In this document: positions 37,532 to 51,955 of the stretch, in pieces | How the letters are laid out: every line of letters starts with the position of its first letter | How positions within the stretch are numbered: the stretch's first letter is position 1 | NCBI RefSeq assembly: GCF_000316605.1 | Contig: NC_019683.1 | Coordinates: 4,262,036-4,326,035, forward strand | From: [Leptolyngbya] sp. PCC 7376 | GTDB taxonomy: Bacteria; Cyanobacteriota; Cyanobacteriia; Cyanobacteriales; MRBY01 | Length of the DNA stretch: 64,000 bases | Reading direction: 5' to 3' | Notes under the pieces: model-generated | What the model was told of the DNA's origin: nothing | Databases searched by the model: none | Seen by the model: only the letters and a program-made list of their open reading frames with translations | Program-made: the position numbers and the translations under genes

Positions 37532-38326
37532 GAGAGTTTCAAGTAGGTAATGCTATAGCAAAATGGGGGGAGTCGTTTCCTTAAAATTCTCTCTATGACA
37601 ATTCATTGTCCTCAATGTAACGCTCAAAACATTATCAAAAGTGGATTTGCTAAAAATCGTCAACGATTTAAGTGTAAGCAGTGTAATTATCAATTTACAA
37701 GCTTTTCTAAAGAGCGGGGCAAGCCTCTCTGGATGAAATTAGAAGCTGTATTGATGTATATGAGTGGTATGTCCATGAATGCGACAGCCAAGATTCTCGG
37801 TGTATCAGCTCAATCAGTGCTCAATTGGGTAAGAGATTTCGGTGAAGCCAATTATGAAAAGCCCACTCCTGAGTCTGCTGTCGTGGTGGAGCTAGATGAG
37901 CTATGGCATTTTATCCAAGAGAAAAAAACAAACTTTGGGTCTGGAAAGCATATCACCGTAATACTGGGCGACTCATTGACTGGGAATTGGGAAGTCGTGA
38001 TAGTCGAACTTTAGGTCATTTACTAGAGCGGTTATCGCAATGGCAAATCACTGTCTATTGCACCGATAATTGGAAACCCTATCAACAGCTATTAGAGAAT
38101 CACCCAGATGCTTTTCATGTCATTAGCAAGAAGGAGACAATAGCAATTGAGAGAAACAATTCAGATAATCGCCATTGGTTCGCTAGGTTTCATCGCAGGA
38201 CGAAAGTTGTCTCAAAATCGAGACAGATGGTTGACTTGACTATGGCATTGTTTGCAAAATTCAGAGTCAATGGAAGCATTAATTTACTGCGCAACTGGCG
38301 TATAGCATTACTGAATTGAAACTCTC
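37532..38326 (+). mobile_element. Complete IS1-family element, third type, copy 1 (795 bp)
   Basis: Inverted repeats begin GAGAGTTTCAA at both ends and share GTAATGCTATA further in. The 8-bp target duplication is TAATTAAT at 37524-37531 and 38327-38334. The rebuilt target reads ACTGTAATTAATTACTGTAG, so the element jumped into a copy of the island's repeated palindrome. A nearly identical copy lies at 51161-51955 in the opposite orientation. Confidence 0.93.
37595..38319 (+). CDS. IS1-family transposase, copy 1, by -1 frameshift
   Basis: The zero frame from ATG 37595 encodes a CPQC/CKQC zinc ribbon, a helix-turn-helix (MSMNATAKILGVSAQSVLNWV) and VVELDELWHFIQEKK. At seven A (37922-37928) a -1 shift gives NKLWVWKAYHRNTGRLIDWE, then VYCTDNWKPYQQLL and AIERNNSDNRHWFARFHRR, to 38319. 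Unshifted, translation stops at about 38014. Catalytic residues are intact. Compared with copy 2, differences include HRNTG for DRNTG and NWKPY for NWEPY. Confidence 0.9.
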
Positions 38327-40473: not shown

Positions 40474-40516
40474 ATTACCCTAATTAATTACAGTAAATAA
40501 CTACTGTAATTTTTTT
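40474..40516. promoter_or_regulatory. Variant of the island's repeated palindrome leader (B)
   Basis: Immediately after the repressor stop (on its strand), CCTAATTAATTACAGTAAAT and ACTACTGTAATTTTTTT occur. Read on the minus strand it gives TTTACTGTAATTAATTAGGG, close to the leader at 45776 and 46398. So the same element sits here in the opposite orientation. Confidence 0.55.
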
Positions 40517-40766
40517 ATTTGCACTTATAGTCAGCTTTCTTTTCAGCAACAGCAAAACTATCGCTATAGTCCATCAACTCTCGTAGTTCATCAGTTGTGA
40601 TCTCTAAAGCATCGGCTAGAGAGAAGAAGTAATCTATTGATGGTTTTGCTCGTTTTTTTATGTAAGACCTTAGTACCGAATCACTCATACCAGCTTCTTT
40701 GGCACATTCGGATACTGATGTGTATTTCTCTAAAATCAAGGCTTTTAGCCTATCCATTGGCAACAA
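40515..40766 (-). CDS. XRE-family helix-turn-helix repressor-like protein
   Basis: 83 residues with a Cro/CI-type helix-turn-helix: SVSECAKEAGMSDSVLRSYIKKRAKPSIDYFFSLADALEIT, where the SVSECAKEAGMSDSVLRSYI stretch is the two-helix motif. Met4 is an alternative start. It is transcribed away from the rightward gene run that begins at 40939, the arrangement of a phage-type genetic switch. The 172-base gap between them holds two hairpins and a direct-repeat-like AACTACCCC segment, good candidates for its operators. Confidence 0.82.
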   Translation of the reverse strand: MLPMDRLKALILEKYTSVSECAKEAGMSDSVLRSYIKKRAKPSIDYFFSLADALEITTDELRELMDYSDSFAVAEKKADYKCK

Positions 40767-40912: not shown

Positions 40913-40938
40913 CGGTTACTAAATAACTACCCCAATTA

Positions 40939-41493
40939 TTGATGATGAATCCCGTATCCACAAGTGGGAATAGTCCCCAAAGTACAGACGTACTAAACAC
41001 TGTGACATCTAACGAAGATGCACAGCCATTACAAGTCGATGAGCCTATCTACTGGAGTGTTACGCGGACAGGCAAAGCAGCGATGACCCCATTAGACCCT
41101 CAGATGTTTGATGGGAAAGGTCTCACGAAATTTTGCAAGACGACCAAAGACCTGCCTAAGACTGACTGGGTTTACAACGCGAAGTCTAAGCACACAAAAC
41201 GAGCTGAGGCTTATCACGGCGATGTGATTTTCGATGCTGAATATGTCCGCCACTGGATCGAACGCAATCTACTAAATCGCTTGATGCCTCACGCTGAAAC
41301 TATCGAAGATTACAAGCAAGTTTGGGATGCGATCGCCCTGAATTGCCCTGAAGTAGGATCCGTTGCCCCTACAGCAATCCATGAATCAGCTCTAAGTATT
41401 CGCGAAAACTGCGACTCTGATGAACTCCCAGACTGTAGTGCATTGAGAGACATTTACGCTTCGTTGAGTGCTTTGATTGCTTCTTTGGGTTGA
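40939..41493 (+). CDS. Hypothetical protein, first gene of the cassette
   Basis: 184 soluble residues of unknown family. It has a polar N-terminus, then YWSVTRTGKAAMTPLDPQMF and GLTKFCKTTKDLPKTDWVYNA, a basic centre (AKSKHTKRAEAYHGDVIF) and an acidic C-terminus with four Cys. As the first gene of a rightward run next to a repressor it may be an early protein, possibly DNA-binding, but nothing shows that directly. Its stop overlaps the TTG start of the next gene by a few bases. Confidence 0.6.
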   Translation: MMMNPVSTSGNSPQSTDVLNTVTSNEDAQPLQVDEPIYWSVTRTGKAAMTPLDPQMFDGKGLTKFCKTTKDLPKTDWVYNAKSKHTKRAEAYHGDVIFDAEYVRHWIERNLLNRLMPHAETIEDYKQVWDAIALNCPEVGSVAPTAIHESALSIRENCDSDELPDCSALRDIYASLSALIASLG

Positions 41494-41951
41494 GCTATCG
41501 AAAATATGGGAATAAGTTCACATGGGTGAACAAAAAGAACACTGAACTTACCACCCACGAAAAGCCTCATCAAGACAAATTACCTGAGTGGATAAGGTTC
41601 GACTCAAAGCTTGAAGCTAATACTTATCAAGCACTCCCTAAACAGGGGTTGATGTTGCAATTCCCTATCACTCTAAAAGCTGGCTTAAACTCTCCGAAAA
41701 TCGACTATGTAGCTGACTTTTTAATAGCTATCCCTAACAAACAGATAGTCATTGAGAGCAAAGGTAAACTAACGCCCGAAGCAAGGCTAAAGCTCAACTT
41801 GCTTGATGCAGTTCACCCAAAATTATTTGCAAACTTACTGATAGTAACCAAGTCCCAAAGGGACATTCAAAAGCTTCCTAAATGGTTACAAGGTAAAGCT
41901 TGCACACTTACAAGACTACCGAAAGTAATTAGCACTTTCTTGGAACAATGA
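41490..41951 (+). CDS. DUF1064-like phage endonuclease
   Basis: SYRKYGNKFTWVNKK, then RFDSKLEANTYQALPKQG and PKIDYVADFLIAIPNKQIVIESKGKLT follow the pattern of the phage DUF1064 family: a tyrosine-lysine-rich start, FDS..EA...., and a restriction-endonuclease-like D...E.K motif (here YVADF ... VIESKG). Members are thought to be nucleases in recombination or replication. It begins with TTG at 41490 coupled to the stop of the previous gene, and ends in ATGA shared with the next. Confidence 0.75.
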   Translation: MSYRKYGNKFTWVNKKNTELTTHEKPHQDKLPEWIRFDSKLEANTYQALPKQGLMLQFPITLKAGLNSPKIDYVADFLIAIPNKQIVIESKGKLTPEARLKLNLLDAVHPKLFANLLIVTKSQRDIQKLPKWLQGKACTLTRLPKVISTFLEQ

Positions 41952-43095: not shown

Positions 43096-43821
43096 ATGAC
43101 ACTCATCGTATCCCTTCCCTACAAGACTCGTACATATGCAACTATCACCCCTGATAAAGATGGTATTTCTCCATGCACTATCGACTGGGAATACATGCAG
43201 TTTGTGAAGATTGAAGGCGGTATTTCATTGCGTGGTAAAGCACGTTCTATCAGCCCTCTAAACATGGCTTACAAGCCTAAAGATTTTGATGCATCCAAGA
43301 ATTTCCCAGTTGATGTAATCATGGATTTCCACACCGATGGAATGAAGTATCGCGAAAAGAATGAATCATCTGGGCAATGGGAAGATAAGCAACTAAAATC
43401 TGTTTCCAACTTCGAGAAATTCCTTTTTGCTTATGCAGAAGAGTTAGGCCTCGAAGCTCAAGTTTCTTGCACCCTGAATATCAATGATTGCAATGCTCAA
43501 GCTCAGGTAGGGAATTACGCCAACGAAGAAGACGCGGTAAAGACCATGGTTGGTTCGATGCTCGTGTCAGGTGTTACTTACCCTGAAAAGCAAGACAATC
43601 CTTTGCCTGAGCCTCAAGAGTATGGCGGTGCTAATAGTCGTCGCTACCCAACCTTGAAGGAAAAACTAGAAAAACTGGACGCTGACACCATCAAGCTAGC
43701 AACAGAGAAAGCGTTTGCTATCCGTTCGCAGTCTGGATTATTTGATAGCGATGTTGATGATCCAGCATCACTTAAAGTCCCAATGGTTGATGTAGTAATC
43801 AACTTGATTGCCAGCCTATAG
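43096..43821 (+). CDS. Hypothetical soluble protein
   Basis: 241 residues, mostly beta in the first half (TLIVSLPYKTRTYATITPDK, MQFVKIEGGISLRGKARSIS) and a helical end (TLKEKLEKLDADTIKLATEK). No catalytic motif is obvious. Position between small genes and the replication-type genes suggests a DNA-metabolism role such as single-strand binding or recombination, which I cannot verify. ATG at 43096 follows ATTACGGAATAAACA, with a weak Shine-Dalgarno. Confidence 0.62.
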   Translation: MTLIVSLPYKTRTYATITPDKDGISPCTIDWEYMQFVKIEGGISLRGKARSISPLNMAYKPKDFDASKNFPVDVIMDFHTDGMKYREKNESSGQWEDKQLKSVSNFEKFLFAYAEELGLEAQVSCTLNINDCNAQAQVGNYANEEDAVKTMVGSMLVSGVTYPEKQDNPLPEPQEYGGANSRRYPTLKEKLEKLDADTIKLATEKAFAIRSQSGLFDSDVDDPASLKVPMVDVVINLIASL

Positions 43822-43829
43822 CCACCCGT

Positions 43830-43872
43830 AGGGTTACTGTAAAAAACTACTGTAAAAAACTACGGTAACCCT
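43830..43872. promoter_or_regulatory. Tandem 13-bp repeat inside a long inverted repeat (C)
   Basis: ACTGTAAAAAACT occurs twice in tandem (43836-43848, 43849-43861) inside arms AGGGTTACTGTA and TACGGTAACCCT (11 of 12 paired). It lies just before the 43901 gene. Related in wording (TACTGTAA, AACTAC) to the other leader elements. Confidence 0.6.
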
Positions 43873-44226: not shown

Positions 44227-45752
44227 ATGGATTTAGAGGAACTACAGCAACAGCTAAAAGTAGAGTTAGAGAACAATGGCAATGACGAAACAGAACCTGA
44301 GACCATCGAGGCTAGCGCCGAACTGGATGGTAATCAAAGCGCTGAACAAAAATCAGACGATCCTTCAGATACTGATAGCGATCAACTTCCTTGTCCTTTT
44401 GACGATGATGATGATCCTCAAGAATCTTTGGCTGATGAATTAGATCAGCTCAAGAAATCTTTGCAGGAAGAATTACAGCCACCACCGCCCAGCACAGACA
44501 AAACAACGCCTTTAGAAGCATTGGGAGAAGAATTAAAAAAGGCAATCGAGGAAGGGTTAGAGGAAGAAGAAAAAGAAAGTGAGCCAAGGCAACCGCCAGA
44601 ATTGCATGACATTGGTATGCAAGCGTTAGACTTCAAAGCGCTACGCCGCAAGCGTCAGTCATGGCAGGATTTATATGACGATGAACTGTCATATCCAAAG
44701 AATATCCTAAACATACTTAAGCGTTCTTTCGTAATACCTGAAGACTGGCTATACCCCTTAATTGCTTCCTACATTATTTTCCCTTCAGCGATTACTGAGA
44801 GAGTACCTATTTTGCAGGTATATGGAACTGCTGGTACAGGGAAATCAACTTTAGGCCATCTCGCTTGTAAGGTGTTTGGGGTTAAGTCCAGAACATCGAA
44901 TGATACAGAAGCTGCATTGCGCCGAATCCTGAACAATTCAAGGTATTTATACAAGAACACCAAAGAGTATGAGCAAAACGTTTTTTTAGTGTATGAGGAT
45001 CTAGATTTTGGTGTCCTTAAGCAGAATGGAGAACTCATCTACCGATTGCTAAAGCTAGGCTATGACCGTTCTTCCGGTTACACTCAGTTTGCGGTGAGTC
45101 GCCAGAAAGCCTTATCGAGCAGTTCATCTATTGCCCTAAAATCCTCAGCTCTACTCAGCCATTATTCAACTATGACCCTGAGCTAAAGAGACGATCTTTA
45201 GTGATTAAATCAAAGTCATTAGATGAGGTCAAAAGCTTCGATAAAAATCAATTAATCTCTATCCCTAGTGTTGAATGGAAGGGCTTTAATTCAGAGCATA
45301 AACGCTACTGGAATACCCTAGACTATGTCCTTGATTTTAATGATGCTGGTGATGCATTGGATACAGTTCTAAACCATATCGGGGCAAGTGAAAAAGCTGT
45401 ACTCCATGACCTTTCAGCGGTGATGGTTTCCACTGGGTTAATGCCATTAGATAAGGTCGTTTCTTTCTGGCAAAAATACTTCATCTACAAAGAAGAAATT
45501 GCGGAAGATGGTACTAAGCCATTGAAGCGTCTAATTGCTGAAAAATTGCATGACTATGAGGAGAAAGCTAAAGAAAATAACCTTATGTCTCCAAATATGG
45601 AGGTATCCAAGCTTGACGCTGAAATAGAGGCATGGCTACAGCAAAAGGTCATCCTCGAAAAACCACGGGCTAGGGAGCTTACCGAGACTATGCTTTCGCT
45701 TGGTTACACAATCAAGAGCATCTCTAAACGTGGCTATTGGGTGAAGACCTAA
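44227..45752 (+). CDS. P-loop ATPase (helicase-like), split by a -1 frameshift
   Basis: Two reading frames form one 508-residue protein if ribosomes shift -1 at the GCC codon 45109-45111. N-terminal 125 residues are strongly acidic, then an ATPase core: Walker A GTAGTGKST near residue 203 and a Walker-B-like VFLVYEDLDFG near 258. After the shift: LIEQFIYCPKILSSTQPLF, then a C-terminal winged-helix-like end (TETMLSLGYTIKSISKRGYW). Without the shift the first frame stops at 45186. A single missing base (gcCcttatc to gcCttatc) would explain it equally well. Role inferred as replication helicase of the element. Confidence 0.62.
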
Positions 45753-45775: not shown

Positions 45776-45819
45776 ATCCGAAAACTACCCTAGTTTTTTA
45801 CTGTAATTAATTACCCTAA
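45776..45819 (+). promoter_or_regulatory. Repeated 44-bp leader, copy D
   Basis: Contains the hairpin AAAACTA-CCC-TAGTTTT (45781-45797) and the perfect palindrome GTAATTAATTAC (45803-45814), ending 9 bases before the ATG of the primase-like gene at 45829. Identical base for base to copy E. Confidence 0.8.
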
Positions 45820-45828
45820 TCCTCAGCT

Positions 45829-46380
45829 ATGAGCACCTTTGCCAAAAAGAAAGAAAAGATTATTCGCGATCCAATGGGTCATGTTTCAAGTTATTACACA
45901 GTAAGCAAGTCTCTCAAAGGTATCTATTATCTCAACACGAGAAGCATTGTTATTGGTGACATTGATTTCAAGGGCAACAGAGACACCCCGCCAACCACTC
46001 AAAAACAAGCACTAGAGTTAATCAACAAAGTAGGGAGCGAATACGGCGTTTGCGCCCATGTTTTCAGGACACAAAACGGATTACGTTTTTTCTGTGATGC
46101 CTCGCATTTAGGCTTTTCACAACAATTAACTTTGCTGAAAATGTTTCGGTGTGATTCGACCTACATCATTTGCTGTGAAAAGCACGGGCAATTTTCCGCA
46201 AGGGCTTCGCCTAAGTCATTTTTTGATTTTACTGGGATCTATCGCCTAGGGCTTTACGGCAAGAAAGAATTTTCAAGCACACCTCTAATCAAAGTCATGA
46301 ATAAACATGATGAGCTTATTGAGCGGTACGAAACCTCCATCCAGAAAATCACAAAAAAAATTAGAGAGATATTGAAATGA
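45829..46380 (+). CDS. Primase-like protein (AEP-type candidate)
   Basis: 183 residues. IVIGDIDFKGN near residues 42-50 fits the Asp-x-Asp strand of archaeo-eukaryotic-type primases, AHVFRTQNGLRFFCD supplies the basic second motif, and FRCDSTYIICCEKHGQFSARASPK a third. Similar unnamed proteins occur in phage replication modules, though I identify it only by these motifs. It has its own leader copy D and runs in the same direction as the ATPase upstream, so the pair may form the element's replication unit. Confidence in the fold is modest. Confidence 0.5.
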   Translation: MSTFAKKKEKIIRDPMGHVSSYYTVSKSLKGIYYLNTRSIVIGDIDFKGNRDTPPTTQKQALELINKVGSEYGVCAHVFRTQNGLRFFCDASHLGFSQQLTLLKMFRCDSTYIICCEKHGQFSARASPKSFFDFTGIYRLGLYGKKEFSSTPLIKVMNKHDELIERYETSIQKITKKIREILK

Positions 46381-46397
46381 GACGCAAAGACATACCC

Positions 46398-46441
46398 ATC
46401 CGAAAACTACCCTAGTTTTTTACTGTAATTAATTACCCTAA
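46398..46441 (+). promoter_or_regulatory. Repeated 44-bp leader, copy E
   Basis: Same 44 bases as copy D, with hairpin 46403-46419 and palindrome 46425-46436, ending 9 bases before the methylase ATG at 46451. The two genes it precedes are otherwise unrelated. Confidence 0.8.
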
Positions 46442-46450
46442 CCCTCAATA

Positions 46451-46999
46451 ATGCCCCTAACTATGCAGAAATTTCAGTCGAAACCATCAGATCAAAGATA
46501 CACAAGATCTAAAGAGTTAAAGCTTGTCTACGACACATTGCAGGTCATCAATCTAGATCCCACTGCTGACCCTGATAAAAGAGTCGATGCGATGTTCCAT
46601 ATCACCGAGCAAGATGACTGTTTAACCACTGACTGGACATCTGCTTGCAGCGGTTTCCCGTCTAGCCAAATCTATATGAACCCGCCCTACAGCAATTCTC
46701 ATCCATTCATCGCTCGATTATGCGAGTACTTGCAAGGTTATCCCGATGCAGTGGCGATCACTCTTACCCATGCTTCGTTGATTCAAACCAAGACATCGCA
46801 GCATTGGTTCAAAAAGTATGCCCGCGCCATTTGCTTGCCTAACCATCGAATCAATTTTGATTATCCAGAAGGCATGAAGAAAAAGAATGGTAATGACAGA
46901 GATTCACTTTGGACTTATTGGGGCGGCGCACATTTCCTAAACAGGTTCACTCAGGTCTACGCCAATGAAGGATTAGTTATGGAGATGAAAAAAGCATGA
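46451..46999 (+). CDS. Phage-type DNA N6-adenine methyltransferase (Dam)
   Basis: 182 residues. The catalytic motif IV is NPPY at 77-80 within QIYMNPPYSNSHPF; phage Dam families (PF05869) carry the same DPPY/NPPY arrangement with a short C-terminal domain, here RINFDYPEGMKKKNGNDRD and a final YWGGAHFLNRF. It transfers a methyl group to adenine N6 in DNA, possibly to protect the element from host restriction or to mark replication. No restriction enzyme lies beside it. Overlaps the next gene by 4 bases. Confidence 0.85.
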   Translation: MPLTMQKFQSKPSDQRYTRSKELKLVYDTLQVINLDPTADPDKRVDAMFHITEQDDCLTTDWTSACSGFPSSQIYMNPPYSNSHPFIARLCEYLQGYPDAVAITLTHASLIQTKTSQHWFKKYARAICLPNHRINFDYPEGMKKKNGNDRDSLWTYWGGAHFLNRFTQVYANEGLVMEMKKA

Positions 47000-47262
47000 T
47001 GAGACGCAAAGACAGACAAGCATTAAGCGATTTTACTCGCTACATATATGGACTAGCTGTACTTAATTCAGCCCTGATTATTGCAGGAGAGATACTCCCA
47101 CCGTTTAGAATTTTTACGTACTTGCTCAGCTCGTTTATACTAGCCAAGTTTTATTTCGGTTGCTCTGACGTAATCATCTTTTATTCAGAACAGATGATGG
47201 CCATCGGGGAAGAGCTAAAGCGTGAACGCCAGCTTCGCCAACAACTAGAGCGGGAGCTATAA
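46996..47262 (+). CDS. Small membrane protein at the end of the cassette
   Basis: 88 residues with two membrane helices near residues 17-34 and 39-57 and a charged C-terminal helix (EELKRERQLRQQLEREL). Overlaps the methylase stop by 4 bases (ATGA), so coupled to it. Holin-like in size and topology, but without any signature. Last gene before tRNA-Gly. Confidence 0.6.
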   Translation: MMRRKDRQALSDFTRYIYGLAVLNSALIIAGEILPPFRIFTYLLSSFILAKFYFGCSDVIIFYSEQMMAIGEELKRERQLRQQLEREL

Positions 47263-47355: not shown

Positions 47356-47426
47356 AGCGGGTGAGGGGAATCGAACCCCTATCATCAGCTTGGAAGGCTG
47401 AGGTTTTACCACTAAACTACACCCGC
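47356..47426 (-). tRNA. tRNA-Gly (UCC)
   Basis: 71 bases on the minus strand including discriminator U73. Acceptor GCGGGTG pairs with CACCCGC, the anticodon loop CTTCCAA gives UCC, and the T stem is AGGGG/CCCCT. CCA is not encoded. Its 3' end faces the accessory cassette, the usual attachment side for tRNA-targeting elements. Confidence 0.97.
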
Positions 47427-51160: not shown

Positions 51161-51955
51161 GAGAGTTTCAAGAGAGTAATGTTAAACGCCAATTGCGCAG
51201 TAGCTCAATACTTCCATTCACTCTAAATTTCGCAAACAGTGCCATGCTCAAGTCCACCATGTGTTTTGATTTAGAGACGACCTTCGTCCTGCGATGAAAC
51301 CGAGCAAACCAATGGCGATTGTCTGAGTTGTTTCTCTCAATTGCTATTGTCTCTTTCTTGCTAATGACATGAAAAGCATCTGGGTGATTCTCTAATAGCT
51401 GTTGATAGGGTTCCCAATTATCGGTGCAATAGACAGTGATTTGCCATTGCGATAACCGCTCTAGTAAATGACCTAAAGTTCGACTATCACGACTTCCCAA
51501 TTCCCAGTCAATGAGTCGCCCAGTATTACGGTCATATGCTTTCCAGACCCAAAGTTTGTTTTTTTCTCTTGGATAAAATGCCATAGCTCATCTAGCTCCA
51601 CCACGACAGCAGACTCAGGAGTGGGCTTTTCATAATTGGCTTCACCGAAATCTCTTACCCAATTGAGCACTGATTGAGCTGATACACCGAGAATCTTGGC
51701 TGTCGCATTCATGGACATACCACTCATATACATCAATACAGCTTCTAATTTCATCCAGAGAGGCTTGCCCCGCTCTTTAGAAAAGCTTGTAAATTGATAA
51801 TTGCACTGCTTACACTTAAATCGTTGACGATTTTTAGCGAATCCACTTTTGATGATGTCTTGAGCATTACATTGGGGACAGTGAATTGTCATAGCGAGAC
51901 TTCCAAGGAAACGACTCACTCCATTTTGTTATAGCATTACTTACTTGAAACTCTC
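51161..51955 (-). mobile_element. Complete IS1-family element, third type, copy 2 (795 bp)
   Basis: Same GAGAGTTTCAA ends as 37532-38326 and the same length, inverted. Target duplication GAAAAGAA at 51153-51160 and 51956-51963. Very similar to copy 1, so recently mobile. Inserted between a terminator and tRNA-Leu, harming no visible gene. Confidence 0.93.
51168..51892 (-). CDS. IS1-family transposase, copy 2, by -1 frameshift
   Basis: Same two-frame layout as copy 1. First frame starts with ATG at 51892 (MTIHCPQCNAQDIIKSGFAK) and reaches VVELDELWHFIQEKK; the -1 frame at the A-run continues NKLWVWKAYDRNTGRLIDWE and ends at 51168. Zinc ribbon, helix-turn-helix and D, D, E residues are intact. 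Confidence 0.9.

What the first reader, a model, noticed from the sequence alone, without database searches (positions are those of the whole stretch)
45776..46441. Two identical 44-bp leaders before unrelated genes
The primase-like and methylase genes each begin 9 bases after the same 44 bases, a hairpin AAAACTACCCTAGTTTT followed by palindrome GTAATTAATTAC. Identity over 44 bases between two otherwise different loci implies selection for a shared signal: a promoter-operator, a terminator-antiterminator, an RNA processing site, or a recent duplication that spread control.
Basis: partly seen in the sequence, partly recalled or inferred. Interest (0 to 1): 0.75.

Follow-up and report, generated by a model that had tools for sequence, protein, structure and literature searches.

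The report
Element-specific palindrome arrays at gene boundaries
The two identical 44-base leaders are two of at least five copies of a triple-palindrome array that marks gene boundaries in a small integrated mobile element; related elements in other cyanobacteria carry arrays of the same design in a DNA sequence of their own, which suggests docking sites for an element-encoded protein that blocks transcription.

Summary
In detail: 45776-45825 and 46398-46447 match at 49/50 bases, and the 44 identical bases end 9 bases before two unrelated ORFs. The "hairpin plus palindrome" is really three near-palindromic boxes (TACNGTA or TACCCTA) with starts 13 bp apart. The same array recurs, diverged, at 40476-40508 and 43835-43867, and once split by an IS (37506/38335). 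Elsewhere in the 5.1-Mb genome paired boxes occur only at control frequency. The arrays belong to a decayed element next to tRNA-Gly; its helicase has relatives in 25 of 391 genomes of the order, in up to nine copies. Six independent relatives carry dispersed arrays with the same 12-13-bp spacing but their own box sequence. Box pairs at 12-13 bp number 49 in 174 kb of elements and 0 in 133 kb of host DNA. Arrays occupy 6/8 convergent, 18/40 tandem and 0/8 divergent spacers. This disfavours ordinary promoter operators and favours boundary devices, most likely bidirectional protein roadblocks (stoperator-like); RNA hairpins are the main rival. The near-identity of the two leaders looks like a recent duplication, not selection. 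The binding protein is unidentified; XRE binding is untested.

The parts
45776..45825 (+). Leader copy 1: array of three boxes TACCCTA 45786, TACTGTA 45799, TACCCTA 45812 (13-bp pitch), between helicase stop 45752 and ORF 45829
46398..46447 (+). Leader copy 2: the same array (46408, 46421, 46434), before the Dam methylase
43835..43867 (.). Diverged array TACTGTA/TACTGTA/TACGGTA at 13-bp pitch, between the ~240-aa gene and ORF 43901 + helicase; same relative position as arrays in relatives
40476..40508 (.). Diverged array TACCCTA/TACAGTA/TACTGTA at 13-bp pitch, just past the xre stop codon
37506..38341 (.). Array split by an IS (IS body 37532-38326, 8-bp target duplication TAATTAAT); joined flanks give TACACCA/TACTGTA/TACTGTA at 13-bp pitch, between convergent gene ends
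40916..40938 (.). Possible degenerate array GTTACTAAATAACTACCCC before ORF 40939; doubtful, not counted as an array
   Evidence: by eye; not scored by the matrix
45829..46380 (+).
46451..46999 (+). Gene B, Dam-type DNA N6-adenine methyltransferase
   Evidence: PF05869; phrog_111
46377..46395 (+). Duplicated start of the gene at 46996 (second copy 46999-47017), same 622-base period as the leaders: trace of the duplication
   Evidence: family D6
44227..45752 (+). P-loop helicase-like gene, core marker of the element family; frame broken between about 45093 and 45114 in this copy
43096..43821 (+). ~240-aa conserved protein of unknown function, upstream partner of the helicase
   Evidence: weak match to relative in L043 (8e-4), alignment
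41490..41951 (+). Nuclease (DUF1064 / Holliday-junction-resolvase-like)
40939..41493 (+). Probable relative of the conserved ~100-aa protein that precedes the nuclease in relatives
   Evidence: weak, alignment
40515..40766 (-). Small XRE-type (HTH_3, SinR-like) regulator, candidate binder
47356..47426 (-). tRNA-Gly(TCC), probable right boundary of the element

Best explanation
Each leader is a three-box docking array for a DNA-binding protein encoded by the element. One box is a 7-9-bp near-palindrome (consensus TTAC-N-GTAA) and boxes lie 13 bp apart, so two or three protein units would bind side by side. Arrays stand at the 3' side of transcription units, between tandem genes and between convergent gene ends, where the bound protein would stop RNA polymerase coming from either direction and keep the integrated element silent and insulated. 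Each element has its own box sequence, as expected if a protein-site pair sets an immunity type. The near-identical pair at 45776 and 46398 arose by a recent duplication or recombination that put a second gene with its array behind the first. SHOWN by sequence: arrays, spacing, dispersal, different sequence in each element, conserved position, avoidance of divergent spacers. INFERRED: that a protein binds, that it blocks transcription, and which protein it is.
For: Genome-wide the paired-box pattern is at 11 places, 8 of them in four arrays of this element, control 3. A box matrix gives pair scores of 22.6-25.5 at 13 bp and at most 18.0 at any other spacing from 9 to 25. Relatives found by the helicase carry 2-5 dispersed arrays each with their own palindrome at 12-13 bp: L088, L089, L090/L098, L091, L093, L094/L095. 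Palindrome pairs at 12-13 bp: 49 in 174 kb of elements, 0 in 133 kb of host DNA. Same position between the ~240-aa gene and the helicase in the window, L088-L091 and L095. 6/8 convergent, 18/40 tandem, 0/8 divergent spacers. Outer boxes of the two leaders are direct copies (TACCCTA twice) that cannot pair with each other as RNA; the leaders fold weakly (z -1.7 and -2.1). Sibling elements L044/L045 in one genome have mostly 82-99% identical core proteins but two small regulator-like proteins at 32-47%.
Against: No binding protein identified: the XRE gene is not shared by array-bearing relatives and no single regulator family is common to all. Models of two shared proteins were too poor to read. 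Many arrays in relatives are perfect inverted repeats with strong RNA folds. Some family members have no array, or a single hairpin, at the helicase position. The repeat sites of L045 differ from each other. This copy is decayed (frame break, IS in an array, no integrase seen), so it may not function now. The spacer count rests on hand-curated gene tables.
Confidence: 0.5

Rival explanations
1. RNA-level signals: the arrays are transcribed and fold into intercistronic hairpins that are cut by RNase III or act as bidirectional 3'-end or termination signals, somewhat like phage T7 RNase III sites.
For: Long inverted repeats in relatives: arms of 17 bp (L089), 13 bp (L095), 15 bp (L090), 20 bp (L091), 22 bp (L093); fold z-scores -4.8 to -8.5 in L088, L089, L095; intercistronic and convergent positions; other family members keep a single hairpin at the helicase position. 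In 43835-43867 the one outer-box difference is a U-G pair in the sense RNA.
Against: The two leaders of the finding do not form a full hairpin; their outer boxes are direct copies. Tandem palindromes fold automatically, so folding is not independent evidence. Fixed 12-13-bp pitch in three-box arrays is not needed for a hairpin. No Rfam match and no terminator-like site at any array.
Confidence: 0.22
2. Classical promoter operators: a repressor (for example the XRE protein) controls transcription initiation of the gene behind each array.
For: Arrays end 9-33 bases before start codons in the window and about 13-27 in relatives; an xre gene lies in the element.
Against: 0/8 divergent but 6/8 convergent spacers hold arrays; no promoter-like site overlaps the leaders; closeness to starts follows from short tandem spacers; XRE not shared by relatives.
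Confidence: 0.13
3. DNA-maintenance sites: replication iterons, partition (centromere) sites or packaging/organisation sites bound by an element protein.
For: Iteron-like repeats near replication genes; several sites per element.
Against: Sites are spread through the whole element and track gene ends, not one origin or centromere cluster.
Confidence: 0.1
4. No function: the leader identity is only a by-product of a recent duplication or recombination.
For: Leader and 3' tail share a 622-base period; 49/50 identity.
Against: Diverged arrays elsewhere in the element keep boxes and spacing, and relatives keep the design. Duplication explains the identity of the pair, not the arrays.
Confidence: 0.05

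Closest known systems
Stoperators of cluster A mycobacteriophages (L5 and relatives; PMC9283540, PMC6550527)
   Same: Many dispersed repressor-type sites in short intergenic spaces; site sequence differs between relatives; proposed effect on transcription elongation.
   Different: Stoperators are single asymmetric 13-bp sites oriented with transcription and bound by a monomer; here near-palindromic boxes stand in tandem arrays of two to four and also between convergent genes. No binding protein is known here.
Intergenic repeat motifs of Nostoc phages A-1 and N-1 (PMC4916379)
   Same: Cyanobacterial mobile DNA with a motif repeated between ORFs; its authors suggested stoperators as one option.
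   Different: Those motifs are described as asymmetric and lie in 65-68-kb phages; here palindromic tandem arrays in elements of roughly 10 kb.
Tandem operators of ribbon-helix-helix repressors (MetJ, Arc type; from general knowledge)
   Same: Short palindromic boxes in tandem, one dimer per box, cooperative binding.
   Different: Those sit at one or a few promoters with shorter pitch; no ribbon-helix-helix protein was recognised by Pfam here.
Phage T7 intercistronic RNase III sites; REP/BIME elements (from general knowledge)
   Same: Palindromic repeats in intercistronic and convergent spacers.
   Different: The arrays keep 12-13-bp box spacing and some do not form full hairpins; no RNA evidence.

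Membership tests
Stoperator system (mycobacteriophage L5 type) | multiple dispersed sites in short intergenic spaces | tested here: met
Stoperator system (mycobacteriophage L5 type) | asymmetric 13-bp site oriented with transcription | tested here: not met
   boxes are near-palindromic, in tandem, and also lie between convergent genes; definition from PMC9283540
Stoperator system (mycobacteriophage L5 type) | site sequence differs between related genomes | tested here: met
   each relative has its own box
Stoperator system (mycobacteriophage L5 type) | a repressor that binds the sites and halts elongation | not testable with these tools
   no binding or transcription data
Gammaproteobacterial LexA/SOS box | CTGT-N8-ACAG | tested here: not met
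   no intact window array contains it (sequences); other elements have other boxes
Intrinsic terminator | G+C-rich stem followed by a T run | tested here: not met
   six sites found, six expected, none at an array
Iteron-type replication origin | one clustered array beside the replication gene | tested here: not met
   arrays are dispersed through the element
Known RNA family (Rfam 15) | match to a curated covariance model | tested here: not met
   only the tRNA passes its threshold
Ribbon-helix-helix tandem operator | ribbon-helix-helix protein encoded by the element | tested here: inconclusive
   candidates by eye in L044, L045, L090; no Pfam match; none seen in the window

The most novel reading that the evidence does not exclude
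A widespread, apparently undescribed family of small tRNA-associated cyanobacterial provirus-like elements silences itself with dispersed, orientation-independent tandem palindrome arrays whose box sequence, together with a fast-changing binding protein, switches from element to element: an independently evolved stoperator-type immunity system.
Probability: 0.33. Interest if true: 0.75.

Novelty: new variant of a known kind. Interest (0 to 1): 0.52.

Why it matters
If a protein binds these arrays, the elements give a natural series of site-regulator pairs with changed specificity, including two sibling elements in one genome that differ mainly in those parts, so the way such specificity evolves could be tested directly. 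The family gave no match in the phage, plasmid and viral collections searched here although its helicase has relatives in about 6% of the genomes sampled in the order, in up to nine copies; the arrays offer a handle to recognise and type its members.

Tried and rejected
Relatives of ORF 45829 and of the ~240-aa protein in phage, plasmid and viral collections: none. Exact triple TACNGTA pattern in viral contigs: three hits with no related genes; one resembles tandem SOS boxes before a DinI-like start (by eye). Pattern with two mismatches in 100 related genomes: outside this element only single hits at control frequency. AlphaFold models of 40939-41493 and 43096-43821: pLDDT 42 and 39, not usable. 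Gene B as a diverged copy of gene A, suggested by the equal 622-base spacing: rejected. An att duplicate of the tRNA-Gly end within the window: none found. SOS box, intrinsic terminator, Rfam RNA: not met.

Full report
CHECK. The repeat is real: 45776-45825 and 46398-46447 agree at 49 of 50 bases and each is followed by a start codon 9 bases after the 44-base identity. Shuffles never gave such a match. The two genes share no similarity. The methylase is a Dam-type enzyme; the other ORF is an orphan without any family match, so 'primase-like' is not supported.

ANATOMY. The 44 bases resolve into CTACCCTAG, TTACTGTAA and TTACCCTAA, three near-palindromic boxes whose starts are 13 bp apart. Searching the whole genome with the leader returns further places in the same element. 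Two of them are intact triple arrays, 40476-40508 and 43835-43867, with other box variants (TACAGTA, TACGGTA). A fifth array was split by an IS with an 8-bp target duplication; joining its flanks restores three box positions at 13-bp pitch. The pattern TASNSTA-N6-TASNSTA occurs at 11 places in 5.1 Mb, 8 of them in the four intact arrays; the reversed control pattern gives 3. With a matrix built from the boxes, pair scores reach 22.6-25.5 at 13-bp spacing and at most 18.0 at any other spacing from 9 to 25; because the matrix was built from these boxes, the contrast between spacings is the informative part. The diverged copies, not the two near-identical ones, are the evidence that the design is maintained. 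The identity of the two leaders goes with a 16-19-base tail repeated at the same 622-base period, in which the start of the following small gene is duplicated; this looks like a recent duplication or a recombination between two versions of the element.

ELEMENT. The arrays lie in a stretch of about 10 kb that ends beside tRNA-Gly. Its left end was not found, nor an integrase or an att repeat. It holds a small XRE gene, a probable relative of a conserved ~100-aa protein (weak), a nuclease, a ~240-aa protein and a P-loop helicase that is frame-broken in this copy. The helicase leads to the same gene order in integrated elements of other cyanobacteria: 25 of 391 genomes of the order have a helicase match, up to nine in one genome. 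Relatives carry tyrosine integrases and, in some, an endolysin, and several lie beside tRNA genes. No relative was found in the viral, phage or plasmid collections searched, apart from two distant plasmid homologues of the methylase. The viral scans used short peptide patterns, so absence there is not proof.

ARRAYS IN RELATIVES. Six independent relatives have dispersed arrays of the same architecture but their own sequence: L089 (TTTGAATCAAA, 13 bp), L090/L098 (ACTTTAAGT, 12 bp), L091 (TTTCTGAAA with AACGTT, 12 bp), L093 (TTATCCAATAA, 12 bp, counted by eye), L094/L095 (TAGCCGCTA, 13 bp) and L088 (CGTTNAACG, 12-13 bp, few copies). L095 repeats one leader exactly before two different genes, the same phenomenon as the finding. 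Over 17 element stretches, pairs of similar 9-bp palindromes at 12-13-bp spacing number 49 in 174 kb, against 0 in 133 kb of host DNA from the same loci; no other spacing exceeds 9. Overlapping pairs within one array are counted separately, so this measures signal, not independent events. In the window and in L088-L091 and L095 an array lies between the ~240-aa gene and the helicase, so position is conserved where sequence is not; in the window a 107-aa ORF intervenes before the helicase. Other family members have no spacer there, or a single hairpin.

POSITION. Spacers of seven elements, classified with hand-curated gene tables: arrays are in 6 of 8 convergent, 18 of 40 tandem and 0 of 8 divergent spacers (Fisher p = 0.008 for divergent against the rest). 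A possible degenerate array at 40916-40938, seen by eye in a divergent spacer of the window, was not counted; counting it would make 1 of 8. A device for starting transcription should favour divergent spacers and be absent from convergent ones. The arrays therefore mark ends or boundaries of transcription units, and their closeness to start codons follows from the shortness of tandem spacers.

MECHANISM. A protein roadblock fits best: palindromic boxes serve both directions, the fixed 12-13-bp pitch suggests side-by-side binding, the outer boxes of the two leaders are direct copies that cannot pair as RNA, and box sequence changes between elements as an immunity specificity would. In genome G050 two sibling elements (L044, L045) have core proteins that are mostly 82-99% identical, while two small proteins that look ribbon-helix-helix-like by eye are only 32-47% identical, and short 12-bp repeats differ too. 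That is suggestive only: Pfam does not recognise these proteins, and the repeat sites of L045 differ from each other. An RNA function remains open because many arrays in relatives are perfect inverted repeats with strong folds; tandem palindromes fold automatically, so this does not discriminate. The protein, its binding and its effect on transcription are inferred, not shown.

COMPARISON. Stoperators of L5-like phages are the nearest functional model (PMC9283540, PMC6550527), but they are asymmetric, oriented single sites; that defining feature was tested and not met, so this may work like a stoperator system but is not filed as one. Repeated intergenic motifs in Nostoc phages A-1 and N-1 were also suggested to be stoperators (PMC4916379). 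I found no published description of such arrays or elements in the searches made, which is a limited look at open-access papers.

Noticed in passing
window 44227-45752: The helicase gene is frame-broken near 45093-45114 relative to relatives: decay or a sequencing error.
   Followed up: partly
window 37532-38326 and about 51168-51919: Two copies of an IS1-like insertion sequence; the first split an array and made an 8-bp duplication TAATTAAT.
   Followed up: partly
L043-L045, L083-L102: An apparently undescribed family of cyanobacterial integrative elements with helicase, nuclease, integrase and in some an endolysin; genome G593 has nine helicase copies. No match in the phage or plasmid records or viral contigs searched; possibly non-tailed proviruses.
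   Followed up: partly
L044 and L045: Two sibling elements in one genome: core proteins mostly 82-99% identical, two small regulator-like proteins 32-47% identical, and different 12-bp repeats.
   Followed up: partly
L099 8368-8387, L101 8381-8398, L085 2381-2407, L087 6343-6375: Family members without arrays carry a single perfect hairpin, different in each lineage, between the ~240-aa gene and the helicase.
   Followed up: no
L099 10886-11296: Three direct copies of a roughly 176-bp repeat in one copy of a nine-copy element.
   Followed up: no
L030 5910-5955 and L032 409-454: Two viral contigs share an array of TACAGTA units at 13-bp pitch with no related genes nearby; unexplained.
   Followed up: no
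window 45829-46380: 183-aa ORF without any detectable family.
   Followed up: yes
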